Shown: piece by piece, positions 622 to 18,718 of the stretch
Numbering within the stretch: the first letter of the stretch is position 1
Layout: each line of letters starts with the position of its first letter
IMG/VR virus record: IMGVR_UViG_3300032323_002532
Coordinates: 1 to 26,383 of that record
Length of the DNA stretch: 26,383 bases
Strand: one strand, 5' to 3'
Source: a virus
Made by a program: the position numbers and the translations under genes
Notes under the pieces: model-generated
What the model was told of the DNA's origin: nothing
Databases searched by the model: none
The model's input: the letters and a program-made list of their open reading frames with translations, nothing else

Positions 622-3600
622 GACGGTGGTATGCTTACGGCTGGCAGTTATGTAGTTCGTGCAGTTAAAGATGTAGCGCAAACTATTACAAGTGGCAGCG
701 ATCAAGTTGTTACATTTTCGGATGATTTTGATCCACAGAATTGGTTTGCTTCAAATAAGTTTCAACCGACTATTGCTGGTTATTATAATATTACTGCTCA
801 GGTTTGGTGGGATGTAGGTGTAGTAACTAATAATCAAAGCAATATACAACTTAGAAAAAATGGAACCACGCAGTTAGCAATTAGTCAAGATCAAATCATG
901 ACTGGTTCTGGTTATGCAATGACATTTTCAACTATTGTATACTTTAACGGTACAACGGATTATGTCGAAGTTACTGCATTTACTGGAAATACAACTTCTC
1001 AGAGCATTAACAGCAGTGCAAATGGAACATATTTTACCGCTGCGCTGTATGCTTATGGTGCCCAAGGTACAACAGGTTCACAGGGTGTTCAAGGTATTCA
1101 GGGACGACAAGGTGTTCAAGGTCTAACTGGGCAAGGTTTACAGGGTCTACAAGGCATACAAGGACAGCAGGGTACTCAAGGTATCCAAGGACCACAAGGA
1201 ATCCAAGGTCCACAAGGTATTCAGGGTCGTCAAGGTGTTCAAGGTGTCCAGGGTATACAAGGTCAACAAGGTATCCAAGGATCTCAAGGTACTCAGGGTC
1301 TACAGGGTATGCAAGGTATCCAAGGACCACAAGGTACTCAGGGCGTTCAAGGTATCCAAGGCCGTGACGGGAACTTTGGTGGCGCAACATTTGATTATAC
1401 ATTCGAAACAACTATAACCAATAGTGATCCAGGTATTGGTAAATTAAGATTCAATGCATTTGATATATCAACTGCTACACAACTATATATTGATGACCAA
1501 AACGATGCTGGCACTGATATACAACCGTTCTTAAGAACAATTGACGATTCTACTTCTACAATTAAAGGTCACTTTAGAATTTCAAATAAGTTTGATCCAA
1601 GTGATTTTGCTATCTTTACTATATCATCTATCACAGAACAAACTGGTTATTTTGAAGTAAATTGCGCTTATGTATCTGGTTCTGCCACGGCATTTTCAAA
1701 TTCTGAAGATGTTATTATTACATTTGCAAGAACTGGTGATATGGGCGCCACTGGTGCTCAAGGTCTACAAGGTATCCAAGGCCGCCAAGGTGTTCAGGGA
1801 CTTACTGGGCAAGGTGTTCAGGGCTTACAAGGTATTCAAGGCCCACAAGGGACTCAAGGTGTTCAGGGTATTCAGGGATCTCAAGGGCCACAAGGAACGC
1901 AAGGTATTCAAGGTCCGCAAGGTACTCAAGGCATACAAGGTGTCCAAGGTATTCAAGGTCAGCAAGGGGTTCAAGGTCTTACAGGTCAAGGTATCCAGGG
2001 TATCCAAGGTCAGCAAGGGGTTCAAGGTCTTACAGGTCAAGGTATCCAGGGTATCCAAGGTCAGCAAGGTGTCCAAGGTCTTACTGGACAAGGACTTCAA
2101 GGTCTACAAGGTATCCAGGGACGCCAAGGTGTTCAGGGTATCCAAGGTGTTCAGGGTATCCAAGGCCAACAAGGTGTTCAAGGTCTTACCGGCCAAGGTA
2201 TTCAGGGACTTCAAGGCATTCAAGGAACTCAGGGTCCGCAGGGTATCCAGGGTCAACAGGGTGTTCAGGGTCAACAAGGAACACAGGGTATTCAGGGACC
2301 TCAAGGTATTCAAGGATCCCAAGGTACTCAAGGTATCCAGGGTCAGCAAGGTGTTCAAGGTCTTACCGGACAGGGTGTCCAAGGTATTCAAGGTCAGCAA
2401 GGTGTTCAAGGTCTTACAGGTCAAGGACTGCAGGGACTTCAAGGCATTCAGGGTCGTCAAGGTATCCAAGGCTTGCAAGGCTTGCAGGGTATTCAGGGAT
2501 CACAAGGTGTCCAGGGTCTAACCGGTCAAGGAATACAGGGTATTCAGGGCCCACAAGGTATTCAAGGACAACAAGGTGTCCAAGGTCTTACAGGGCAAGG
2601 TGTTCAGGGACTTCAAGGTATCCAAGGAACTCAAGGTACCCAAGGTCTGCAAGGTGTTCAGGGTATTCAGGGATCTCAAGGTGTCCAGGGTCTTACAGGA
2701 CAGGGTATTCAAGGCCTACAAGGTATTCAAGGGCAGCAAGGTGTCCAAGGTCTTACAGGTCAAGGTATTCAGGGACTTCAGGGTATTCAGGGGCGCCAAG
2801 GTGTTCAAGGTCTACAAGGTGTTCAGGGTATTCAAGGACAACAGGGTGTCCAAGGTCTAACTGGACAGGGTATTCAGGGTATTCAAGGCATCACGGGTCA
2901 GCAGGGTGTTCAAGGTATAACTGGACAAGGTCTCCAGGGACTTCAGGGTATTCAGGGACGCCAAGGTGTTCAAGGTCTACAAGGTGTTCAAGGTATCCAG
3001 GGATCGCAAGGTGTTCAAGGTCTTACAGGACAGGGTGTTCAAGGACTACAAGGTATTCAAGGGCAGCAAGGTGTCCAAGGTCTTACAGGCCAAGGTATTC
3101 AGGGTCTACAAGGTCTTACAGGTCAAGGTATTCAGGGTCTACAAGGTATTCAAGGACGCCAAGGTGTTCAAGGTATCCAAGGTTTAACTGGTGGATTTAC
3201 AAATTGGATTGTAAGAACTAGTAACTACACTGCCGTTTCTGGAGATAGAATACTTGCAAACACTGCAGGTGGCACATTTACTATTACACTTCCAGCCACA
3301 CCAGCTACAGGTGCATTTGTAGTAATTGCGGATGCTAATGATTGGTCAGCTATAAATCTAACTGTTGCAAGAAACGGTAGTACTATCGAAGGTATAGCAG
3401 ATGATGTTATAATGGATATTAAAGGTTTCGCTGTAGAGTTTGCCTATGACGGCACAACATGGGAAATCTATACCGCGGTTGGTGTTCAAGGTACACAAGG
3501 TACCCAAGGAACACAAGGTATCCAGGGTCGTCAAGGTCTTACAGGGCAAGGTGTTCAAGGCTTGCAAGGTATCCAGGGATCTCAAGGTGTTCAGGGTATT

Positions 3601-4200
3601 CAAGGTCTTACGGGTCAAGGTATCCAAGGTACCCAGGGACTACAAGGTGTTCAGGGTATTCAAGGTGTTCAGGGTATTCAAGGTCGTCAAGGTGTCCAAG
3701 GCTTGCAAGGTCTTACTGGGCAAGGTATCCAAGGTATCACAGGTGCTCAAGGTATTACTGGTGCCAGTGTATCTGTAACAATCGCGGATGACACTACAAC
3801 AAACGCTACTAGATATGTAGGATTTGTTAGCGCTACAAGTGGAACAACAACTACGTTTAATGTTTCATCAACTAAACTTTATTTTAATCCTTCTACCGGT
3901 GATTTATCAGCAACTAATTTTAACTCACTTTCGGATGCAACATTTAAAGAAAACTTTAAGCCTATCGAAAATAGCTTTGATATTTTAGATCAAATAAATA
4001 CATATAGTTTTGATTGGAAAGATAATAAAACAAAGAGTTATGGTGTAATTGCACAAGAACTTGAAGAGATTATGCCAGAACTTGTAAAAACAAACAATGA
4101 TGGGTGGAAAACAGTTACATATACACCTCTTATCGCAATCTTGATAGAAGCAGTTAAGAAGTTAAAAACTGAAGTTGAAACTATAAAGAAAGATAACTAA
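1..4200 (+). CDS. Collagen-like tail fibre with C1q-like and S74 chaperone domains (5' partial)
   Basis: This frame is open from base 1 with no stop before the TAA at 4198-4200, so the gene starts outside the window. The ATG at 631 is internal: the same frame encodes collagen-like Gly-X-Gln triplets upstream of it. At least 1399 residues are present. Order by residue from base 1: collagen 1-207; C1q/TNF-like beta domain about 211-353 (NKFQPTIAGYY); collagen 354-456; a beta domain about 457-580; collagen 581-1064; a small beta domain about 1065-1160; collagen 1161-1255; a beta lead-in; then a Peptidase_S74 intramolecular chaperone from Ser1311 (SDATFKENF, GVIAQELEE). Ser1311 and Lys1316 match the family's Ser-Lys self-cleavage pair, so the last 89 residues are probably removed after trimer folding. 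The role, a trimeric host-recognition fibre, is inferred from domains. The next gene overlaps by one base (TAATG). Confidence 0.9.
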   Translation, partial: QGIQGSQGTQGIQGPQGIQGQQGIQGSQGTQGIQGQQGVQGLTGQGIQGIQGHQGIQGIQGPQGIQGRQGVQGVQGITGQGVQGLQGIQGTQGPQGTQGIQGQQGVQGLTGQGVQGLQGIQGQQGTQGTQGIQGPQGIQGIQGQQGLQGTQGLQGTQGTQGIQGHQGIQGIQGPQGTQGIQGQQGIQGPQGLQGTQGIQGRQCIQGTDGGMLTAGSYVVRAVKDVAQTITSGSDQVVTFSDDFDPQNWFASNKFQPTIAGYYNITAQVWWDVGVVTNNQSNIQLRKNGTTQLAISQDQIMTGSGYAMTFSTIVYFNGTTDYVEVTAFTGNTTSQSINSSANGTYFTAALYAYGAQGTTGSQGVQGIQGRQGVQGLTGQGLQGLQGIQGQQGTQGIQGPQGIQGPQGIQGRQGVQGVQGIQGQQGIQGSQGTQGLQGMQGIQGPQGTQGVQGIQGRDGNFGGATFDYTFETTITNSDPGIGKLRFNAFDISTATQLYIDDQNDAGTDIQPFLRTIDDSTSTIKGHFRISNKFDPSDFAIFTISSITEQTGYFEVNCAYVSGSATAFSNSEDVIITFARTGDMGATGAQGLQGIQGRQGVQGLTGQGVQGLQGIQGPQGTQGVQGIQGSQGPQGTQGIQGPQGTQGIQGVQGIQGQQGVQGLTGQGIQGIQGQQGVQGLTGQGIQGIQGQQGVQGLTGQGLQGLQGIQGRQGVQGIQGVQGIQGQQGVQGLTGQGIQGLQGIQGTQGPQGIQGQQGVQGQQGTQGIQGPQGIQGSQGTQGIQGQQGVQGLTGQGVQGIQGQQGVQGLTGQGLQGLQGIQGRQGIQGLQGLQGIQGSQGVQGLTGQGIQGIQGPQGIQGQQGVQGLTGQGVQGLQGIQGTQGTQGLQGVQGIQGSQGVQGLTGQGIQGLQGIQGQQGVQGLTGQGIQGLQGIQGRQGVQGLQGVQGIQGQQGVQGLTGQGIQGIQGITGQQGVQGITGQGLQGLQGIQGRQGVQGLQGVQGIQGSQGVQGLTGQGVQGLQGIQGQQGVQGLTGQGIQGLQGLTGQGIQGLQGIQGRQGVQGIQGLTGGFTNWIVRTSNYTAVSGDRILANTAGGTFTITLPATPATGAFVVIADANDWSAINLTVARNGSTIEGIADDVIMDIKGFAVEFAYDGTTWEIYTAVGVQGTQGTQGTQGIQGRQGLTGQGVQGLQGIQGSQGVQGIQGLTGQGIQGTQGLQGVQGIQGVQGIQGRQGVQGLQGLTGQGIQGITGAQGITGASVSVTIADDTTTNATRYVGFVSATSGTTTTFNVSSTKLYFNPSTGDLSATNFNSLSDATFKENFKPIENSFDILDQINTYSFDWKDNKTKSYGVIAQELEEIMPELVKTNNDGWKTVTYTPLIAILIEAVKKLKTEVETIKKDN
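1060..1365 (+). repeat. Collagen-like repeat tract 2
   Basis: About 100 residues of Gly-X-Gln triplets link the C1q-like domain to the next globular domain. One GLTGQ interruption lies near the start (about 1120-1134). The tract ends at a GRDGN turn. Confidence 0.9.
1741..3192 (+). repeat. Collagen-like repeat tract 3 (longest)
   Basis: About 480 residues of Gly-X-Gln triplets carry most of the recurrent G(L/I)TGQ interruptions, roughly one per 20-40 residues. Gly and Gln codons vary freely (CAA/CAG, GGT/GGA/GGC/GGG) while the protein pattern stays fixed. An exact tandem duplication lies at 1954-2055. Confidence 0.9.
1954..2055 (+). repeat. Exact 51-bp tandem duplication inside the collagen tract
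   Basis: Bases 1954-2004 and 2005-2055 are identical. The unit encodes 17 residues and carries exactly one GLTGQ interruption. The following unit (from 2056) encodes the same pattern for its first 12 residues but with different synonymous codons, so the identical pair looks recent. Confidence 0.9.
3481..3765 (+). repeat. Collagen-like repeat tract 4
   Basis: The last collagen segment, about 95 residues, lies before the C-terminal beta lead-in and S74 domain. It contains three GLTGQ interruptions and ends in GIT-GAQ-GIT-GA. Confidence 0.88.
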
Positions 4201-8765: not shown

Positions 8766-9809
8766 ATGGGCGAAGTGAAAAAAGGATTTTCTGAAGTAGA
8801 ATCCAAATATAAGTTTGGCAATGATAATTCATTTATGAAATTTATATTAGAACAAGGAGGTGACATAAAGCCTCTTATAATTCCTTCCGAATTTACAAAT
8901 GGTACTGGAATTATGAATCCATCAATCTATAAGTTAGATGATGGGACATTATTAGTTAATATTAGACACGTTAACTATACATTTTATCACTCAGAGAAAA
9001 AACTATTACAACATCAATGGGGTCCACTGACATATCTGCACCCTGAAAATGATATGCACTTAAGAACAAATAATTTCTTCTGTGTATTAAATGAAGATCT
9101 TAGTATTAGATCTGTTGTCAAAATTGATACTTCTAAATTTGATACATACGAGCCAATGTGGGATTTTGTTGGGCTTGAAGATGTCAGATTGGTAATATGG
9201 GATGATAAACTTTATGCCACAGGTGTTCGCAGAGATACAACTACAAATGGTCAAGGTAGAATGGAACTATCTGAATTAGATATAATTGATGATAAAGTAG
9301 TAGAAATTTCCAGAAAACGAATACCACCACCAAATGATCCTAATTCATATTGTGAAAAAAATTGGATGCCAGTAATAGATCAAGAATATACATATGTCAA
9401 ATGGTGTAATCCTACTGAAGTCGTGCAAGTTGATCCTGAATCAGTTACATCTAAAACCATACATCTTGGAAATCAATATCAAGCACCAAATGACTTTAGA
9501 GGTGGTACTCAAGTAATTCCTTTTGTTGATGGATATAGATTTGCATTAATCCATGAAGTAGATCTTTTCAGAAGTGAACACGGGCGAAAAGATGCAGTAT
9601 ACAGACATAGATTTATTGTCTGGGATGAAAATTGGAATGTAGTAAAATTCACTAAAGATTTTTCTCTCATGAATGGTCATGTTGAATTTGCTGTTGGTAT
9701 GTGTAAAATGAATGATGATATCCTAATTACATTCGGTTTCCAGGATAATGCTGCATACATAATCAAAGCAAAATTTGATCACATTGTAGAGTTTATTAAC
9801 TCAAACTAA
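8766..9809 (+). CDS. GH130/GH43-like five-bladed beta-propeller protein, glycan-active
   Basis: The 347-residue protein starts at ATG 8766, behind AAAGG at 8753-8757 and the late promoter. Landmarks of the five-bladed propeller enzymes are visible: NPSIYKLDDGTLLVNIRHVNY (in two parts, residues 51-60 and 61-71), GLEDVRLV with LYATG (136-153), EKNWMP (197-202), RGGTQVIPF (245-253), YRHRFIVWD (279-287), and HVEFAVGM with ITFGFQDNAAYI (305-332). GH130 members cleave or phosphorolyse mannosides, and related propellers of unknown activity accompany glycosyltransferases in viral gene clusters. Catalytic residues cannot be assigned by eye, so the substrate is unknown. It is the first gene of the island, three bases ahead of a glycosyltransferase. 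It could trim a glycan or be a non-catalytic sugar-binding propeller. Confidence 0.55.
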   Translation: MGEVKKGFSEVESKYKFGNDNSFMKFILEQGGDIKPLIIPSEFTNGTGIMNPSIYKLDDGTLLVNIRHVNYTFYHSEKKLLQHQWGPLTYLHPENDMHLRTNNFFCVLNEDLSIRSVVKIDTSKFDTYEPMWDFVGLEDVRLVIWDDKLYATGVRRDTTTNGQGRMELSELDIIDDKVVEISRKRIPPPNDPNSYCEKNWMPVIDQEYTYVKWCNPTEVVQVDPESVTSKTIHLGNQYQAPNDFRGGTQVIPFVDGYRFALIHEVDLFRSEHGRKDAVYRHRFIVWDENWNVVKFTKDFSLMNGHVEFAVGMCKMNDDILITFGFQDNAAYIIKAKFDHIVEFINSN

Positions 9810-9811
9810 TA

Positions 9812-10783
9812 ATGACTAAAATACTATTTCATGAAAATCAATTAGGTGAAAGAGGCACTACTGTAGCTATGTATGATTATGCATACTATCTACGGTTAAT
9901 TTATGGTGCTGATCCTATCATTGCATATAATACATCAAATAAAAATGATGAAGATACCGTAGCAAAATTCAAAAAAGAATTTAATGTACTTTCATATGAA
10001 AATTTTAATGAATTAGATAAGTTTATTGAGAAAAATGCAATACCGTATTTTTATGCAATAAAATATGGCTATAATGATGGTATTATTTCTAAATCATCAA
10101 AAAATTTAATACATTCAGTTTTTTCAAAAAGCTTAGATGATGTTCATGGTGATAGATATGCGGTTGTCTCTGAATGGCAGTCTCTATATTCAAGTAAACA
10201 AATACCTTCAGTTCCTCATATGTTAAATTTAGTAGATACGGATGAAGATTTAAGAGCAGAATATTCAATACCTTCTGACGCAATAGTGATAGGAAGACAT
10301 GGTGGATATGATACTTTTAATATTGATTTTACAGTTGAAAGTATCTATACAGTTTTAAATACACGATCTAATGTATGGTTTCTTTTTGTAAACACCGAAC
10401 GAAAGATTTTACATGAAAGATGTATATACATAGAAAAGATAATAGATCTAAAACAAAAAACTAAATTCATCAACTCGTGCGATGCTATGATACATGCAAG
10501 AGATTACGGAGAAACATTTGGTCTATCTGTTTTGGAATTTGCAGCAAAAAATAAAGCTATAATAACATATGATAATGAAGATTATCAGACCAATCATCCG
10601 CTGGGTGGAAGAAATCATTTTCTATTTTTACAAGATCAGTGTTATAAATATACCAACAAAGAACAATTAGATGATATTTTCTTACACATAGAAAAAGAAA
10701 ATAAATTTAATACTCTGTTTCTTGCTGATAAATTTTCACCTGCGAATGTCACAAAAATTTTTAAAGAAATTTTTCTGAATTGA
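9812..10783 (+). CDS. GT4-type (GT-B fold) glycosyltransferase
   Basis: The 323-residue protein starts at ATG 9812, two bases after the previous stop. No ribosome site is obvious, so it is probably translated by coupling. The C-terminal half carries the GT4 nucleotide-sugar motif DYGETFGLSVLEFAAKNKAI (residues 231-250) with an E-x7-E pair at Glu234 and Glu242. A linker strand (IVIGRHGGYDTFNI, 158-171) sits where the GT-B phosphate-binding loop starts. The N-terminus (ERGTTVAMYDYAYY, 13-26) would form the acceptor domain. These enzymes transfer a sugar from a nucleotide donor with retention of configuration. Donor and acceptor cannot be told from sequence. It is cytoplasmic, with no signal or membrane segment. 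Confidence 0.8.
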   Translation: MTKILFHENQLGERGTTVAMYDYAYYLRLIYGADPIIAYNTSNKNDEDTVAKFKKEFNVLSYENFNELDKFIEKNAIPYFYAIKYGYNDGIISKSSKNLIHSVFSKSLDDVHGDRYAVVSEWQSLYSSKQIPSVPHMLNLVDTDEDLRAEYSIPSDAIVIGRHGGYDTFNIDFTVESIYTVLNTRSNVWFLFVNTERKILHERCIYIEKIIDLKQKTKFINSCDAMIHARDYGETFGLSVLEFAAKNKAIITYDNEDYQTNHPLGGRNHFLFLQDQCYKYTNKEQLDDIFLHIEKENKFNTLFLADKFSPANVTKIFKEIFLN

Positions 10784-10805: not shown

Positions 10806-12239
10806 ATGATAATAGATTGCTTTCCTTATTTTAATGAAAAAGAATTATTAGAATTAAGAATAAAACTTTTACAAGATAAGGTTGATAAATTTATCATAAC
10901 AGAGGCTGATAGAACACACAGCGGTCAACCAAAACATATGACATTCCTTGAAACACTAAGAGGAATGAAAGACATTCCGCTGGAAAAAATCTTTTATCTT
11001 CAAGTAGCACTACCCTCAAGAGAAGAAGAGCCCAATGATTGGGTACGAGAAAGAATGCAGAGAGATGCTGCAGGGAAACACATAAAAGAAGATGATTATG
11101 CGCTAGTAAGTGATCTAGACGAAATAATGAATCCAGATTTTATTGAATATTATGTGAGTATAGCAAAAAATCACAAGAACAATGTATTACGTTTACCTCT
11201 TGTATTCCTTTGCAGTAGAGCAGATATGCGCGTGTATAATGAACAGGGAAATCCTGTAAGCTGGTCCACACCTTTTATTGCTAGTAAGCATCATCTTAAT
11301 AAGTATAGTCTTTCAGATATTCGTGAATCACATTCACTGTCAAAGAATAACCTAGAATATGGTGATATTTTTGTAACCGAAAATGGTGTTATGAAAGAAG
11401 CAGGTTGGCATTTTACTTGGATGGGAAATGAAACAAGAAGACAAACTAAAAAGAATGCATTTGCCCATTGGCATGAAGTTCAACTTGTGCCCAACTATAA
11501 AGCACAAAATGGTTCAGTAGATCCATTAGGAAGAACAGATCATATACTAAAAAAATATGATACAAGTGAATTGCCAAAGCTAGTATATGATTTGAAAAAT
11601 GTAAAAAACTTCCTATTACCAGATACTGATGGGAGAAGTATTTTAGAAACTCTAAATGAAAATCCATTCTTAAGTACAGATAAAAATTCTGTATTTTATA
11701 AAAGATATCCAGCAGAATGGCCATTTTTACAACATCACAGTTATATAGAAAATTTTTATGAAGACTATTTTAAAGAATATTGTGATAAACAAAACAAGAT
11801 ATTAGAAATAGGTATTGATACTGGTGGTTCAATTGCTCTTTGGCATGAATATTTTAAAAATTCTACAGTTGTTGCTCTAGACATTCGAAAAGAAAGATTA
11901 AAACCTGAATATGATGAAGATAAATTTGAAAGAGCAGTTTATGCATATGTCAAAGATGCATATGATCCTATCTTTATAGATTCACTAGGAATGTTTGACA
12001 TTATCATAGATGATGGACCTCATACATACGAGACTCAGCGTGTAACGGTAGAGCAATATTTGAAAAAATTAAATAAAGGTGGTATATTAGTGATAGAAGA
12101 TATCTCTACAATTGAATATGCAAATGATCTGTATAATAGAGTTCCTAATAGCGATGAATATACAAAGTTTCTAATTGATCTAAGAGAAAAAGATAATAGA
12201 TATGATAGTATCATTTTAGCGGTTAAAAGATCTGCATAA
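10806..12239 (+). CDS. GT17-family glycosyltransferase fused to a class I methyltransferase
   Basis: The 477-residue protein starts at ATG 10806, with GGAG at 10794-10797. Residues 1-240 match Glyco_transf_17, the family of the eukaryotic bisecting N-acetylglucosaminyltransferase MGAT3: DCFPYFNEKELLELRI (4-19), VDKFIITEADRTHSGQPK (26-43), NDWVRERMQRD (77-87), SDLDEI (102-107, holding the DxD metal site) and AGWHFTWMG (199-207). Residues about 315-477 are a Rossmann SAM methyltransferase of the macrocin/CmcI type: ILEIGIDTGGSIALW (332-346), a VVALDI strand, FDIIIDDGPH (397-406) and GGILVIEDI (425-433). One chain could add a sugar and methylate the product, or a neighbouring sugar. Specificity is unknown. 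Its end overlaps the next start (TAATG). Confidence 0.85.
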   Translation: MIIDCFPYFNEKELLELRIKLLQDKVDKFIITEADRTHSGQPKHMTFLETLRGMKDIPLEKIFYLQVALPSREEEPNDWVRERMQRDAAGKHIKEDDYALVSDLDEIMNPDFIEYYVSIAKNHKNNVLRLPLVFLCSRADMRVYNEQGNPVSWSTPFIASKHHLNKYSLSDIRESHSLSKNNLEYGDIFVTENGVMKEAGWHFTWMGNETRRQTKKNAFAHWHEVQLVPNYKAQNGSVDPLGRTDHILKKYDTSELPKLVYDLKNVKNFLLPDTDGRSILETLNENPFLSTDKNSVFYKRYPAEWPFLQHHSYIENFYEDYFKEYCDKQNKILEIGIDTGGSIALWHEYFKNSTVVALDIRKERLKPEYDEDKFERAVYAYVKDAYDPIFIDSLGMFDIIIDDGPHTYETQRVTVEQYLKKLNKGGILVIEDISTIEYANDLYNRVPNSDEYTKFLIDLREKDNRYDSIILAVKRSA

Positions 12240-12982
12240 TGCACTATAGTGAAGTTGACTTTTACTCTTTTTGCTTTGTAAATCAACCTGCAAAAATGAG
12301 AATGCCAAAGCAGACGGATCTGATGTTAGGTGCGGCAGTTCATCGAATGTATAATGCAAATTATGAACACGATGATACGGGTAATAATATATCAGATTTA
12401 AATTATTGGCTTGGTCAGACTACAGGTATCTATTGGGTTTGGAAAAATTCAAATAAAGATTATGTCGGAACTTGTACTTATAGAATTTTCTGGAACGAAG
12501 AAGAACTTAATTCTATAAATATTGATGAAAATACGTTAATAGTTCCAAAAGCAATAAATGTAAACACAGCTGCACCTCCATTAACTAACGATAGATATAA
12601 TCTTGTGACTCAATATATTACATGTCACGGTGATCTCGCTATTTCTATGTTATATGCTACTGTCAATTTAGAAAATACAAAAATAAAACAACATATGCTA
12701 GATGATTTAAAGAACAGTGAATTTTTCCATCCGTATAGTATGTATATAACAAGTAAAAAAGTAAATGATGTTATCTGCAGTGTATTATTTGATACTTTAT
12801 TAAAAATATACTTTAAATATCAACACATTTTTTATTTGGCCGATAAAGATAAAAATGGAACTTACAAAAGACTGTTAGATTACTTAGCAGAAAGAATACT
12901 ACATTTAATATATACTAATATTAACTACTATATAGCGGGTGTTAAAATACACGAGGTTAGTATTATAGATTTACCACATTGA
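12239..12982 (+). CDS. DUF4422 family protein, probable glycosyltransferase
   Basis: The 247-residue protein starts at ATG 12239, overlapping the preceding stop. The family core is clear: DDTGNNISDLNYW (residues 45-57), TGIYWVWKN (62-70), DYVGTCTYRIFW (74-85) and later QYITCHGDLAI. DUF4422 proteins occur in capsule and O-antigen clusters and are regarded as GT-A-like glycosyltransferases. The usual HYRR stretch at the end of the core reads TYRI here, so a residue common in the family is replaced. That may change activity or mark a divergent lineage. The C-terminal helix (KRLLDYLAERILHLIYTN) is typical. It would act in the cytoplasm on the same glycan as its neighbours. Confidence 0.75.
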   Translation: MHYSEVDFYSFCFVNQPAKMRMPKQTDLMLGAAVHRMYNANYEHDDTGNNISDLNYWLGQTTGIYWVWKNSNKDYVGTCTYRIFWNEEELNSINIDENTLIVPKAINVNTAAPPLTNDRYNLVTQYITCHGDLAISMLYATVNLENTKIKQHMLDDLKNSEFFHPYSMYITSKKVNDVICSVLFDTLLKIYFKYQHIFYLADKDKNGTYKRLLDYLAERILHLIYTNINYYIAGVKIHEVSIIDLPH

Positions 12983-12993
12983 GAGGTTATAGA

Positions 12994-14253
12994 ATGCAAG
13001 ATCTTATTAAACAATTTGTCATATCGCCAAATGATCCAGAAACTAACTTTACATTAGCAAGACATTACCATGAAATAGGCCAAACTGCATCTGCTGTTTC
13101 ATACTATATTAGAACAGCAGAAAGAACAGAGGATCTATTTTTAAGATACGAGTCTCTTCTTCATGCTGCAAATTGCTTTGAACGACAGGGTACTAGAAGG
13201 TTTACAGTAAAAGGTATCCTTCAACAGGCAATAACAATAATGCCGAAGCGACCTGAAGCATATTACCTTTTGAGTAAATTGTACGAATACAACGAAAGTA
13301 ATGAAGGTCGCCACTTAGATTCATATATGATGTGTTCGATAGCTTTGGATGTATGTAATTTTGAAGATACAAAGAATTTAAGATATCCAGTAGAATACCC
13401 TGGCAAATATGCTATCATGTTCCAGAAAGCAATTATGGGCTGGTGGAATGGTCTGAATGAAGAAACTAAAAATATATTGCTGGATCTCTACACAAATTAT
13501 GAAATGTCAGAAAATTTCTACACGACTGTCAAAAATAATCTGATTAATATAGGTGCTTTTGCTTCAAAGCAATTGACGCATTATACTAAAGACAAATTTG
13601 ACAAGATGAAAGTAAAATTCAACAATCTAGATAAGATTGAACAAAATTACTCAGAGTCATATCAAGATATGTTTGTTCTTTCAATTATGGATGGAAAAAG
13701 AGATGGATCATACTTAGAAATTGGTTCGGGGCATCCAACATATGGTAACAATACATACCTATTGGAAAAGCAATTTGGATGGAATGGTATATCAATTGAT
13801 TTAAGTGAAGAATTTATTGGACTTCACAAAAATGAGAGAAGTCACCATGCCCTATTGAAAGATGCAACTCTTATTAATTATGATGCACTTTTAAGTACAA
13901 TGGATATGCCACCAGTAATAGATTATCTTCAGGTAGACGTAGATCCTGCTGATGTTTCATTGAATGTTCTATATTCTATACCATTCGAAAAGTATAAATT
14001 TAGAGTTATCACATTCGAGCATGATTACTATACCGATCCAAAAAGTACCGTAAGAGAAAAGGCAAGAAAATTTTTAACTAGCCATGGATATATACTAGTA
14101 GTACCAAATATATCTCCGGATGATAATAGACCATATGAAGACTGGTTTGTAAATCCCAATGAGACTGATATGAACATGGTTTCGAGATTTATTTCAAACA
14201 ATCAAGAAACTAAAAACGCTGAAAAATTTATGATGGGAGTATATGATGAATAA
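12994..14253 (+). CDS. TPR-like protein fused to an FkbM-like methyltransferase
   Basis: ATG 12994 is chosen over TTG 12979 because GAGAGG at 12981-12986 is well placed for it. The 419-residue protein has an N-terminal helical-repeat region, about residues 1-200, with TPR-style alternation (NFTLARHYHEIGQTASAVSY, PEAYYLLSKLYEY). It ends in an FkbM/Methyltransf_21-like SAM domain from about 222: GSYLEIGSGHPTYGNNTYLLE in two parts (238-247 and 248-258), NGISIDL (264-270) and a DYLQVDVD strand. FkbM-type enzymes usually methylate sugar or macrolide hydroxyls. The TPR-like half may bind a protein or hold the complex together, and similar helical regions accompany protein-glycosylation enzymes. The target is unknown. 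It overlaps the next gene by eight bases. Confidence 0.78.
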   Translation: MQDLIKQFVISPNDPETNFTLARHYHEIGQTASAVSYYIRTAERTEDLFLRYESLLHAANCFERQGTRRFTVKGILQQAITIMPKRPEAYYLLSKLYEYNESNEGRHLDSYMMCSIALDVCNFEDTKNLRYPVEYPGKYAIMFQKAIMGWWNGLNEETKNILLDLYTNYEMSENFYTTVKNNLINIGAFASKQLTHYTKDKFDKMKVKFNNLDKIEQNYSESYQDMFVLSIMDGKRDGSYLEIGSGHPTYGNNTYLLEKQFGWNGISIDLSEEFIGLHKNERSHHALLKDATLINYDALLSTMDMPPVIDYLQVDVDPADVSLNVLYSIPFEKYKFRVITFEHDYYTDPKSTVREKARKFLTSHGYILVVPNISPDDNRPYEDWFVNPNETDMNMVSRFISNNQETKNAEKFMMGVYDE

Positions 14254-15031
14254 GATACCTGTTGTAGGAGCTGCTGTTGTAAATAGCAGTTTCTGGGTAT
14301 CAAGACTTTTGATGAGTGTTGATTACCCAGTTGAGAATTTTATCATAATAAACAACAATGGTCGAGGTTTATTGGAAGAAGAACTAAATAATCTGGTTAA
14401 GATAAAACACCGATATATAGAAAATATAAAGGTTGTGCATATGCCAGCTAATATTGGATGTGCAGGTGCATGGAACTTGATTATAAAGTGCTACATGAAT
14501 GCTAAATACTGGGTGATTGTAAATGATGATGTTGCATTCAAACCAGGTTTATTAGAAGAAATAAACAACATTATAGAAACAAATGATGAAGTAGGTACCG
14601 TTCATCCAAATGCTGGTGATTTTAATATTGGTGCATGGGATCTTTTTGCTATACACGAAAGAGCAGTTAAGCAATTAGGTCTATTTGATGAAAATACATA
14701 CCCCGCATATTGTGAAGATGCAGATTACATCATGCGTATGACTAATAAAGGTGTGAAGAAAGTTGTAGGTCTTCAAAATGGTTATCTTCACGGAACAGGA
14801 GATGCAAAAGACTATTATGTTCATGGAAGACAGACTGAAAAATCAGATGATAATCTTCGACATATTTTACAGACCGCAAATGAAATGAATATAGATTATC
14901 TCACTAGAAAATGGGGACCAGGCTGGAGAAATGTCTGCCCTCAAGAAACTCCATTTGCAGGAGAAGAGAGAGATATTAGTTATTCACTTTATGACCTAGA
15001 ATTTGTTCGCAAAAAATATACAGGATTTTAA
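14246..15031 (+). CDS. GT2-type (GT-A fold) glycosyltransferase
   Basis: Two adjacent ATGs are possible, 14243 and 14246. The second is six bases from GGAG at 14236-14239 and is preferred. The 261-residue protein has a GT-A pattern: an N-terminal strand (VVGAAVVNS), then FIIINNNGRG (residues 32-41), HMPANIGCAGAWN (65-77), and WVIVNDDVAFKPG (89-101) with NDD as the metal-binding DxD equivalent. CEDADYIMRM (156-165) holds the likely acidic catalytic region. The last third (RQTEKSDDNLRH, YLTRKWGPGWRN) is typical of rhamnosyl- and galactosyl-type GT2 enzymes, though no sugar can be assigned. It is soluble, with no membrane segment. Confidence 0.8.
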   Translation: MNKIPVVGAAVVNSSFWVSRLLMSVDYPVENFIIINNNGRGLLEEELNNLVKIKHRYIENIKVVHMPANIGCAGAWNLIIKCYMNAKYWVIVNDDVAFKPGLLEEINNIIETNDEVGTVHPNAGDFNIGAWDLFAIHERAVKQLGLFDENTYPAYCEDADYIMRMTNKGVKKVVGLQNGYLHGTGDAKDYYVHGRQTEKSDDNLRHILQTANEMNIDYLTRKWGPGWRNVCPQETPFAGEERDISYSLYDLEFVRKKYTGF

Positions 15032-15032
15032 T

Positions 15033-15782
15033 ATGACATTACCAATCTCAGCAGGAATTCTTTCTTGGAAAGCACCTAATACACTCGAAAAAACACTGGA
15101 AACTTATGTCAAAAATGATCTATTTGATTTAATCAAAGATGTTGTCATTTTATTCCAGGAAGTTACAGATGATGATAAAAGACTAGCAAATAAATTTAAT
15201 TTGCCATTTATTGGTCTTGATAGTAATATTGGCATAGGTAATGGTATGCTTATGTTAGCTGAGCAAGCACGCAATGAAAAATTCATATTTTTAGAACATG
15301 ATTGGCAGTTAGTAGAAAATTATTTTAATACCAAACGAAGGCTTGTCGGTGCTCTAGAATTAATTGATGATGGTTATGATGCAGTTAGATTACGCTCCAG
15401 AAGAAATTTTGGTTATCCTTTATATTCTGAAATATATAAAGGAAATGAATTGAATCATTATGATCCAGTTACAGATTTAATATCCCCGCATCTATTTGAT
15501 TGTATACATTGGATTGATGAACCAGATAAAGTATTCCCAGATAAGATCCAGAAATATAAATATCATTATGTTACAACTTCAAGATGGTCAAGTTGGACAA
15601 ACAATCCTTGCTTATTTGAAACTAAATTTTTAATTAATTCCATAAAAAATTATGTTTCACACGAAGAAAAACATCTCGAGCCTTCAATATCAAAATGGTG
15701 GACAAGTCAAAACTATAAAGTCGCCTGGGGTGAAGGTCTTTTCAAACACGTAGATCATGATAAATGGGGTCCTAGAGAATGA
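15033..15782 (+). CDS. GT-A-fold glycosyltransferase (GT2-like)
   Basis: ATG 15033 is used rather than TTG 15003. It follows AGGA at 15022-15025 by seven bases and starts right after the previous stop. The 249-residue protein shows a GT2-like N-terminus: SAGILSWKAPNTLEKTLETY (residues 6-25), DVVILFQEV (36-44), LDSNIGIGNGM (62-72) and FIFLEHDWQL (84-93), where EHDW sits at the usual DxD place. After that comes RLRSRRNFGYPLY and a Trp-rich tail (SRWSSWTNN, SKWWTSQNYK). The GT-A pattern is clear, but sequence alone does not give donor or acceptor. Its stop overlaps the next start (ATGA), so it is translationally coupled to the fusion gene. Confidence 0.72.
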   Translation: MTLPISAGILSWKAPNTLEKTLETYVKNDLFDLIKDVVILFQEVTDDDKRLANKFNLPFIGLDSNIGIGNGMLMLAEQARNEKFIFLEHDWQLVENYFNTKRRLVGALELIDDGYDAVRLRSRRNFGYPLYSEIYKGNELNHYDPVTDLISPHLFDCIHWIDEPDKVFPDKIQKYKYHYVTTSRWSSWTNNPCLFETKFLINSIKNYVSHEEKHLEPSISKWWTSQNYKVAWGEGLFKHVDHDKWGPRE

Positions 15783-17119
15783 GAAATAAAATTGTATTGG
15801 TAACTGGAGGATTTGATCCTATCCATAGTGGGCATATTGCATATTTTAAAGAAGCAAAAAGATTAGGTGATACATTAGTCGTAGGTGTCAATAGCAATGA
15901 ATGGTTAACTCGTAAAAAAGGACAACCATTTATGGACATAAACGAAAGAGTGGAAATTATAAAAAATCTTTCAATGGTCGATTCAGTAATTGTCTATGAT
16001 GACTCTGATGGAAGTTCAAGCGCAGCAATACGTCATTGTCTTGATGCTTATAAGGATTCAAAAATCATTTTTGCTAATGGTGGTGATCGCACAAAAACAA
16101 ATATTCCAGAAATGAATATGTCTTGCACAAATGAAGAATCAAATAGACTTGAATTTATATTTGGTGTTGGTGGCGAGCATAAGATGAATTCATCATCAAA
16201 AATACTAACCGAATGGAAGACACCAAAGACAGAACGAAAGTGGGGTTATTATAGAGTTTTACATTCTGATGGTCCATCACTTAAGGTGAAAGAATTAGTT
16301 GTAGAACCTGGTAAATCTCTCAGTCTACAAAAACATAATTTAAGAAGTGAATATTGGATTGTATCACACGGTGTTGCCACTGTAAACCATGGAACTGATC
16401 TTGATACCTTAAATTGTTCTGTATTAGAAAAGAATGATGAGATATACATTCTAAAAAATGAATGGCATCAACTAATGAATAAAACAGATGATGAATTGAG
16501 AATTGTTGAAATACAATATGGGATAAATTGCATAGAAGAGGATATAATCAGAATGGAAGCATCCAATGATCTGATAGATAAGGAATATGAATATGCTGTT
16601 AATGTTTACTCAGATATACATGAACACGTGCCTGTACTATATGAATTAGCAAAAGAGTGCAATACCGTTACTGAAATGGGCGTATTCCGTGGAAATAGCA
16701 CGAGAGCATTTCTAAAATCAAACGCTAAGATAACTTCTTATGATATTGCGCTATTACCAGAGGCCGTAAATTTGGTACAAAAGGCAAAAAATATTGGAAA
16801 GAATATAAATCTATTTCAGGCTGACGTATTAAAAATAGAAATAGAAGAAACTGATCTATTGTTTATAGATACTAAACATACATATAATCAATTGAAAGAT
16901 GAACTTAAACTTCATGGAAATAAAGCAAGAAAATATATAGTACTACATGATACTATTGCATATGGTCTTGTGAATGAGCCAGATAATAGCAGAGTTGCCG
17001 ATGATCATGGTCTTTTGCCAGCTTTGATGCAATTTCTTATAGAAAATAAAAACTGGAGAATTAAAAAGTTCTTAACTAACAACCATGGACTAACAGTATT
17101 AGAAAGAATTTATTTTTAA
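15779..17119 (+). CDS. Three-domain fusion: nucleotidyltransferase, PMI-type cupin, SAM methyltransferase
   Basis: The 446-residue protein starts at ATG 15779 in an ATGA overlap. Residues 1-145 are a cytidylyltransferase-like nucleotidyltransferase: VTGGFDPIHSGHIAYF (8-23) has the HxGH motif, followed by RKKGQPFMDINERVEII (45-61) and NSSSKIL (137-143) in place of the ISS-x motif. Residues 153-265 are a type II mannose-6-phosphate isomerase cupin: KWGYYRVL, then PGKSLSLQKHNLRSEYWIV (177-195), EWH (228-230) and VEIQYGI; Gln184, His186, Glu191 and His230 fit the metal site. Residues about 275-446 are a class I SAM methyltransferase (VTEMGVFRGNST, 297-308; LLFIDTKHTYNQL, 360-372). The protein could activate, isomerise and methylate a sugar. 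It may equally be a regulatory cupin between two enzymes. It is the last island gene. Confidence 0.85.
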   Translation: MRNKIVLVTGGFDPIHSGHIAYFKEAKRLGDTLVVGVNSNEWLTRKKGQPFMDINERVEIIKNLSMVDSVIVYDDSDGSSSAAIRHCLDAYKDSKIIFANGGDRTKTNIPEMNMSCTNEESNRLEFIFGVGGEHKMNSSSKILTEWKTPKTERKWGYYRVLHSDGPSLKVKELVVEPGKSLSLQKHNLRSEYWIVSHGVATVNHGTDLDTLNCSVLEKNDEIYILKNEWHQLMNKTDDELRIVEIQYGINCIEEDIIRMEASNDLIDKEYEYAVNVYSDIHEHVPVLYELAKECNTVTEMGVFRGNSTRAFLKSNAKITSYDIALLPEAVNLVQKAKNIGKNINLFQADVLKIEIEETDLLFIDTKHTYNQLKDELKLHGNKARKYIVLHDTIAYGLVNEPDNSRVADDHGLLPALMQFLIENKNWRIKKFLTNNHGLTVLERIYF

Positions 17120-17182
17120 TTAGATAAATCTATTATACCATACCCGTAGAATGTGTCAACCAAAAAGCAATGTCTTTAATAG

Positions 17183-17190
17183 TATAAATA
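17183..17190 (+). promoter_or_regulatory. T4-type late promoter for the neck and tail block
   Basis: TATAAATA lies 32 bases before the gp13 ATG, in the 102-base gap 17120-17221. The sequence and placement match the late promoter at 8721. Nothing else was recognised in this gap apart from the AAGG ribosome site at 17211-17214. Confidence 0.75.
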
Positions 17191-17221
17191 GAAAAAACTT
17201 CCACTTCTTTAAGGTGACAGA

Positions 17222-17977: not shown

Positions 17978-18718
17978 ATGGCAACTAATGTCTTCTTTTC
18001 AAATTACAATTTCTTTAATGAGCAGCAACTCATTGATGATTTAGTTATAGAGTCAATCCAAATATATGGAGTCGACACATTTTACGTGACTAGAACTTCT
18101 AGTGCTTTTGATCACATCATGAATGAAGATAGATTAACAGTATTTGATGCTGTATATCAGATGGATATGTATGTCAAGTCTGTGGATGGTTTTAGTGGTC
18201 AAGGTGACTTCCTTTCAAAATTCGGATTGGAAATTCGAGATCAAGCAACATTTACTGTTGCGTATAGAACTTTTGAACGTTTTGCAACACGTCATGATCC
18301 TTCTTTACTACGTCCAAAAGAAGGCGATTTGATTTATATGCCAATGAATAAGAAATTCTTTAAGGTCATGTTTGTAGAACATGAATCAGTATTCTATCAG
18401 ACCGGTGCTCTTCAAGTGTATGATCTAAAATGTGAATTATTTGAATATTCAAATGAGAGATTTGAAACAGGTGTTGATGATATTGATACACATTATGCAG
18501 ATCACAAAACTGATGATATTGAAAATCTTGAAGATATGTTTATTGCAGATCCAATAGCTAAAAATATATTCTATGAAGAAAAAGGTAATGATATTATAGA
18601 CTTCAGCGAGTTGGATCCATTCAGTGAAACTATATTCCCACCATCAAATTATGGAACTACTGCAGATTCAATTAAAGTAACTGCCGACGATGGCAATATT
18701 ACTTCAGACACGATATAA
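17978..18718 (+). CDS. gp14: Neck protein gp14 (T4-like)
   Basis: The 246-residue protein is close to the 256 of T4 gp14. The start (MATNVFFSNYNFFNEQQLID) is followed by DLVIESIQIYG and FYVTRTS. The GFSGQGDFLSKFGLEIRDQ stretch (about residues 71-89) corresponds to the conserved G-GQGD-FSKFG region of the family, and the later LRPKEGDLIYMP matches as well. In T4, gp14 joins gp13 at the head-tail interface. The Asp/Glu-rich tail (DFSELDPFSE) continues into a short spacer before the next structural gene. The adjacent order gp13-gp14 is conserved across T4-like phages. Here gp15 does not follow directly. Confidence 0.9.
   Translation: MATNVFFSNYNFFNEQQLIDDLVIESIQIYGVDTFYVTRTSSAFDHIMNEDRLTVFDAVYQMDMYVKSVDGFSGQGDFLSKFGLEIRDQATFTVAYRTFERFATRHDPSLLRPKEGDLIYMPMNKKFFKVMFVEHESVFYQTGALQVYDLKCELFEYSNERFETGVDDIDTHYADHKTDDIENLEDMFIADPIAKNIFYEEKGNDIIDFSELDPFSETIFPPSNYGTTADSIKVTADDGNITSDTI

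What the first reader, a model, noticed from the sequence alone, without database searches (positions are those of the whole stretch)
15779..17119. Single protein joining nucleotidyltransferase, mannose-6-phosphate isomerase-type cupin and methyltransferase
Seen: HxGH nucleotidyltransferase motifs at residues 8-61, a type II PMI cupin with the metal-site pattern Gln184/His186/Glu191/His230, and a Rossmann methyltransferase from about 275, in one uninterrupted frame. Type II PMI cupins are usually paired with a GMP-type pyrophosphorylase. Here the partner resembles the small cytidylyltransferase class and a methyltransferase is added. This may be a compact activated-sugar factory of a kind I do not recognise.
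Basis: partly seen in the sequence, partly recalled or inferred. Interest (0 to 1): 0.75.

Follow-up and report, generated by a model that had tools for sequence, protein, structure and literature searches.

The report
Phage mannose-activating enzyme with added methyltransferase
A virus gene joins an isomerase, a sugar-activating enzyme and a methyltransferase in one protein; the first two form a widespread pair that looks like an unrecognised way of making activated mannose, and the third was added in this virus.

Summary
ORF 15779-17119 is one 446-aa frame: HxGH nucleotidyltransferase (NT, about 1-140), type II phosphomannose-isomerase (PMI) cupin (151-258; Q184/H186/E191/H230) and class I O-methyltransferase fold (259-446), in a T4-like phage contig. 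NT-PMI alone is common: it is a stand-alone protein of about 255 aa in all 143 cupin-bearing viral relatives and in many bacteria, motifs kept. Only this contig carries the methyltransferase, inserted between the last NT-PMI codons and the conserved spacer before gene 13. The new point is likely function. Elsewhere the NT is fused to a HAD hexosephosphate mutase/PMM beside a GH130 phosphorylase, and NT-PMI is fused to GDP-mannose dehydratase next to GDP-fucose synthase. Canonical ManC was found in 0 of 57 NT-positive genomes of one phylum; in 117 genomes of the SAR11 order ManC-PMI and NT-PMI never co-occur. On trees this is one switch in SAR11 and about five changes in the other phylum, so it is not statistically secure. 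At about 0.6 I conclude that NT-PMI is a non-homologous counterpart of ManC/AlgA making NDP-mannose (probably GDP-mannose), here joined to a probable sugar O-methyltransferase. No biochemistry was done.

The parts
15779..16198 (+). HxGH nucleotidyltransferase domain (residues 1-140), proposed mannose-1-phosphate nucleotidyltransferase
   Evidence: PF01467 56.9 bits; best NT match in NCBIfam TIGR02199 (72.2 bits, cut-off 181.5); GGFDPIHSGH, FANGGDR, NSSSKIL conserved; pLDDT mostly above 85
16229..16552 (+). Type II PMI cupin (residues 151-258), metal site Q184/H186/E191/H230
   Evidence: PF01050 79.8 bits; TIGR01479 profile 358-463; residues invariant in 23 sequences; Foldseek to Thermococcus PMI 7zvm TMt 0.83 and 7zvy_B 0.81
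16553..17119 (+). Class I SAM methyltransferase (residues 259-446), lineage-specific addition starting at its own Met
   Evidence: Methyltransf_24 24.6 bits; model pLDDT 93; VIA Z 18.7 to 8c9v, 18.2 to MeT1 6g80_A; relatives up to about 50% identical are mostly stand-alone genes
17120..17221 (+). Spacer before gp13, with TATAAATA at 17183-17190 (T4-type late promoter motif, recalled); the same spacer follows the NT-PMI stop in relative L003
   Evidence: alignment with L003-L006
17222..17974 (+). gp13-like head-tail adaptor
   Evidence: phrog_211 4.2e-37; directly downstream of NT-PMI in near relatives
17978..18718 (+). gp14-like neck protein
   Evidence: PF11649 1.1e-33; phrog_460
9812..10783 (+). 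GT-B glycosyltransferase-like gene of the cassette
   Evidence: PF00534 5.2e-4, below its cut-off
10806..12239 (+). GT17 glycosyltransferase fused to a Methyltransf_24 domain
   Evidence: PF04724 8.9e-14; PF13578 4.9e-7
12239..12982 (+). DUF4422 protein, probable glycosyltransferase (recalled)
   Evidence: PF14393 7.5e-23
14243..15031 (+). GT2 glycosyltransferase
   Evidence: PF00535 2.5e-7; phrog_29879

Best explanation
The protein is a phage sugar-activating enzyme. The PMI cupin interconverts fructose-6-phosphate and mannose-6-phosphate; a hexosephosphate mutase (the host's in this phage; fused or adjacent in some bacteria) makes mannose-1-phosphate; and the HxGH domain couples it to an NTP, most likely GTP, giving NDP-mannose for the glycosyltransferases of the same cassette. 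NT-PMI thus does the job of bifunctional ManC/AlgA with a non-homologous nucleotidyltransferase. In this phage a sugar O-methyltransferase gene was inserted in frame at the 3' end, probably to methylate the sugar made or the glycan built from it. Shown: architecture, conserved active sites, insertion point, gene and domain associations. Inferred: substrates, nucleotide, methyl acceptor.
For: PMI domain match and fold. Fusions and neighbours: NT + phosphomannomutase PF03332 (55.6 bits, cut-off 22.4) directly after a GH130 phosphorylase (L304; the mutase part matches 4bnd alpha-phosphoglucomutase at 5e-40 and PMMs from 5e-18); NT-PMI-GMD fusion with GDP-fucose synthase next (L217); GMD, GDP-fucose synthase, NT-PMI in a row (L192); NT-PMI and GMD about 1.2 kb apart (G050); a HAD mutase of the 4bnd/PMM family overlapping NT-PMI (L207, 2.6e-42); NT and a separate PMI cupin close together in G389, G188, G330, G157, G128, G074; NT-GT2 fusion (L223). 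ManC distribution: full-length match in 0 of 57 NT-positive genomes against 63 of 104 others in the 116-genome sample; in 117 genomes of the SAR11 order 58 have ManC-PMI, 48 NT-PMI, none both. MeT1, second by VIA for the methyltransferase, methylates mannosides (passages of PMC9883506).
Against: No biochemistry. The exclusion of ManC is one change on the SAR11 tree and about five in the other phylum, with a non-significant sign test (p 0.25-1). 3 of 25 genomes reached through family members do hold a ManC domain (G008, G021, G025). 8 of 37 GMD-positive genomes have neither ManC nor NT. The NT scores best, though far below cut-off, to heptose-1-P adenylyltransferase, and its closest solved chains are ethanolamine-phosphate and glycerol-3-phosphate cytidylyltransferases. 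The nearest solved mutase is a phosphoglucomutase. Of 8 viral SDR neighbours examined only L272 is GMD-like, itself below cut-off. In SAR11 NT-PMI sits between polA and an MFS gene, not in a sugar locus. No mutase gene was recognised in the window.
Confidence: 0.6

Rival explanations
1. The NT activates a different compound (heptose-1-phosphate, glucose-1-phosphate or a polyol phosphate) and the cupin is another isomerase or epimerase on its precursor.
For: Best NT match in NCBIfam is TIGR02199 heptose-1-P adenylyltransferase (72.2 bits) and PHROG 7878 carries that label; nearest solved NTs are cytidylyltransferases of alcohol phosphates; the fused mutase is nearest to an alpha-phosphoglucomutase.
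Against: All equivalog scores are far below cut-off (72.2 of 181.5; 48.3 of 165.4); the cupin is PMI-type and the fusions and neighbours point to mannose: PMM, GMD, GDP-fucose synthase, GH130.
Confidence: 0.25
2. The three-domain fusion is an assembly or sequencing artefact: NT-PMI and methyltransferase are separate overlapping genes whose stop was lost through an error.
For: All 143 cupin-bearing viral relatives stop within about 12 residues after the cupin; no second fused contig was found; the methyltransferase piece begins with a Met, as a free gene would.
Against: The frame is open through the junction; the sequence before the junction and the spacer after the methyltransferase both match L003, so the insert sits in one phage context; composition does not change (G+C 0.33/0.32/0.31 for NT/cupin/methyltransferase).
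Confidence: 0.2
3. The cupin binds a sugar or metal without catalysis and steers the NT or the methyltransferase.
For: The phage cupins stop right after EDIxR and lack the D-x-Y-x-R tail of most cellular forms.
Against: The Q/H/E/H ligands are invariant in A1, and the QxH..R.E.W motif is kept in all two-domain proteins examined, though it was also used to pick them.
Confidence: 0.1

Closest known systems
Bifunctional mannose-1-P guanylyltransferase/PMI (ManC/AlgA/XanB, TIGR01479)
   Same: Fused PMI cupin; matches the profile's C-terminal part 358-463; ManC-PMI and NT-PMI replace each other in the SAR11 order
   Different: The GT-A NTP_transferase half is absent; an HxGH domain of another fold takes its place
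HldE C-terminal domain, heptose-1-P adenylyltransferase (TIGR02199)
   Same: HxGH NT acting on a sugar 1-phosphate; best NT score in NCBIfam
   Different: 72.2 bits against a cut-off of 181.5; a GGDR/NIPE and SSS pattern of its own; partnered with PMI, not a heptose kinase
MeT1, mycobacterial mannoside 1-O-methyltransferase (6g80)
   Same: Closest characterised fold to the methyltransferase part (VIA Z 18.2, 164 aligned, 18% id)
   Different: Low identity; many sugar and catechol O-methyltransferases score within about 2 Z
Stand-alone cyanophage NT annotated as heptose-1-P adenyltransferase (P-TIM68, S-SSM7)
   Same: 55-58% identical NT domain
   Different: No cupin; lies by DNA polymerase and uvsX

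Membership tests
TIGR01479 GMP_PMI (ManC/AlgA) | N-terminal GT-A NTP_transferase domain | tested here: not met
   no PF00483 match in P0001; TIGR01479 matches only profile 358-463
TIGR01479 GMP_PMI (ManC/AlgA) | whole-protein score over cut-off | tested here: not met
   77.8 of 372.95 bits
PF01050 MannoseP_isomer | Pfam gathering score and QxH..R.E.W plus distal His | tested here: met
   79.8 of 23.6 bits; Q184, H186, E191, H230 invariant
PF01050 MannoseP_isomer | PMI activity | not testable with these tools
   needs an assay
PF01467 HxGH nucleotidyltransferases | gathering score and HxGH | tested here: met
   56.9 of 21 bits; H16, H19 invariant
TIGR02199 heptose-1-P adenylyltransferase | equivalog cut-off | tested here: not met
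   72.2 of 181.5 bits
TIGR01518 glycerol-3-P cytidylyltransferase | equivalog cut-off | tested here: not met
   48.3 of 165.4 bits
Methyltransf_24 | Pfam gathering score | tested here: not met
   24.6 of 26.3 bits
Class I SAM O-methyltransferase fold | class I SAM methyltransferase fold | tested here: met
   model pLDDT 93; Z 18.7 to 8c9v over 163 residues, rmsd 2.4

The most novel reading that the evidence does not exclude
NT-PMI is an unrecognised second route to GDP-mannose: an HxGH mannose-1-phosphate guanylyltransferase that has displaced ManC in a SAR11 clade, in candidate-phylum bacteria and in many phages. In this phage it is joined to an O-methyltransferase, giving one protein that makes, and helps methylate, the sugar of the phage's glycan.
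Probability: 0.45. Interest if true: 0.8.

Novelty: new variant of a known kind. Interest (0 to 1): 0.62.

Why it matters
GDP-mannose feeds surface polysaccharides, fucose synthesis and glycoproteins, and its pyrophosphorylase is, as far as I recall, always the GT-A ManC/GMPP type. If an HxGH enzyme does this job in SAR11 and its relatives, in candidate-phylum bacteria and in phages, the annotation 'heptose adenyltransferase/cytidyltransferase' is wrong for many genes, apparent gaps in the mannose pathway of those genomes close, and phages are seen to carry their own mannose activation. The claim needs one enzyme assay or one complementation.

Tried and rejected
Considered and rejected: (a) the NT acts with the CDP-alcohol phosphotransferase next to it in SAR86-type loci: that gene follows UvrC in L189, the usual uvrC-pgsA pair (recalled), so it is probably a housekeeping neighbour. 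(b) The Fisher p of 1.8e-22 for the SAR11 order: the rpoB tree shows a single change, so I do not use it. The p of 3.9e-5 for the other phylum is likewise not corrected for kinship. (c) Replacement at the same locus in SAR11: in 6 ManC-PMI loci no polA or MFS match within the stretch fetched. (d) L200, an apparent long fusion, runs through a masked stretch. (e) L337 and L338, which match the junction pattern, are unrelated genes. (f) The whole-protein model did not fold the methyltransferase (pLDDT under 50 there); it was folded alone. Foldseek's first ranks for the whole model, CapF chains, align at TMq 0.27 and were set aside.

Literature: searches gave no paper on an HxGH mannose-1-phosphate guanylyltransferase or an NT-cupin fusion among the titles and abstract starts listed; most subscription journals are not held. 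I read passages of PMC9883506 only.

Full report
What is there. The window is itself a 26,383-base virus record. It holds T4-like gp13, gp14 and gp15 genes, a collagen-like fibre with a Peptidase_S74 end, and a run of glycosyltransferase genes. ORF 15779-17119 lies at the end of that run, directly before gp13. It is a single 446-aa frame with an HxGH nucleotidyltransferase (NT), a type II PMI cupin and a methyltransferase.

The first two domains are a standard unit. A scan of viral contigs gave 76 relatives and a second, profile-based scan at least 600, of which 80 were kept. Of the 152 loci examined, 9 hold the NT alone and 143 hold the cupin (a few are overlapping pieces of one contig); every one of the 143 stops within about 12 residues after the cupin, and none of the 127 in which both domain motifs were seen exceeds 281 aa. 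The genome scan found at least 518 cellular relatives, 80 kept, from SAR11, SAR86, Patescibacteria and others by record title; 68 of the 80 show both domains and 12 do not. All motifs searched for (five in the viral, four in the cellular set) are present in 82 of 82 distinct viral and 68 of 68 cellular two-domain proteins; two of them were used to choose the rows. This is a maintained enzyme, not a chance joining.

The methyltransferase is an addition. Its 66 relatives in viral contigs (48% identity at best in that scan) are mostly stand-alone genes of about 190 aa; a few (L095, L097, L112, L116) have long other N-terminal parts; none is attached to NT-PMI. Phage records in GenBank gave no match. 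The sequence before the junction, and the spacer after the methyltransferase with its TATAAATA motif, align with relative L003 (NT-PMI 90% identical), where the spacer follows the NT-PMI stop directly. So the methyltransferase was inserted there. A read error at the junction cannot be excluded. A pattern search for the same junction found only two unrelated genes. The fold is a class I O-methyltransferase: Z 18.7 to 8c9v and 18.2 to the mannoside methyltransferase MeT1, with COMT and several sugar O-methyltransferases at 15 to 17; the model does not decide the acceptor.

What NT-PMI does. Four kinds of association point to mannose. (1) The cupin itself: PMI by Pfam and by fold. (2) Fusions: in L304 the NT is fused to a HAD hexosephosphate mutase (Pfam PMM; nearest solved chain an alpha-phosphoglucomutase, then phosphomannomutases) just downstream of a GH130 phosphorylase, an enzyme class that releases mannose-1-phosphate (recalled; Pfam title); in L217 NT-PMI is fused to GDP-mannose 4,6-dehydratase with GDP-fucose synthase next; in L223 the NT is fused to a GT2. 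(3) Neighbours: GMD and GDP-fucose synthase before NT-PMI in L192, GMD about 1.2 kb from NT-PMI in G050, a HAD mutase overlapping NT-PMI in L207, and separate NT and PMI genes close together in six genomes. (4) Distribution: see next paragraph.

Distribution, told both ways. Of 25 genomes reached through loci of the family, 3 have a canonical ManC domain; 8 of the 25 have GMD over its cut-off, and G008 is the only one of those 8 with ManC. In the phylum of the L217 genome (Patescibacteria by its title), ManC is present in 63 of 116 genomes and the NT in 12, none with both; a larger set gives ManC in 0 of 57 NT-positive genomes. Of 37 GMD-positive genomes, 24 have ManC, 5 the NT and 8 neither. 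In the order of the L149 genome (Pelagibacteraceae by its title), 58 of 117 have ManC-PMI, 48 full-length NT-PMI, none both, 11 neither or only fragments. But rpoB trees show one change in that order and five changes of the NT label in the phylum, with only 5 independent pairs and no significance. The pattern is consistent with repeated replacement, but it is not a statistical proof.

Against the reading: the NT resembles heptose-1-P adenylyl- and alcohol-phosphate cytidylyltransferases in the databases; the nearest solved mutase is a glucose one; in SAR11 the gene lies between polA and an MFS transporter; only 1 of 8 viral SDR neighbours looked at is GMD-like; and no mutase was recognised in the window. 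The nucleotide is not settled; GTP is favoured because GMD uses GDP-mannose.

Verdict. The three-part protein is real in the assembly. Its NT-PMI part is a widespread enzyme for which I propose, at about 0.6, mannose activation by a nucleotidyltransferase not homologous to ManC. The methyltransferase is a lineage-specific extension, likely a sugar O-methyltransferase. I found no description in print within the searches named.

Noticed in passing
10806-12239: A second glycan-enzyme fusion in the same cassette: GT17 glycosyltransferase joined to a Methyltransf_24 domain.
   Followed up: partly
631-4200: Long fibre with nine collagen-repeat stretches and a C-terminal Peptidase_S74 chaperone domain.
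   Followed up: no
8766-9809 and 15003-15782: Two cassette proteins (347 and 259 aa) with no credible Pfam match.
   Followed up: no
L304 1468-2715: NT fused to a HAD hexosephosphate mutase, directly after a GH130 phosphorylase, in a small-genome bacterium.
   Followed up: yes
L097, ORF ending near 2439: The methyltransferase relative in L097 appears by eye to carry a second methyltransferase-like domain in front of it.
   Followed up: no
L230-L300 viral loci: NT-PMI lies near a UvsX-like gene (by eye) and a conserved 151-aa protein of unknown function in about 50 phage contigs.
   Followed up: no
G395, G141, G264 and others: Some candidate-phylum NT matches run through one stop codon near the end of the domain; not examined.
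   Followed up: no
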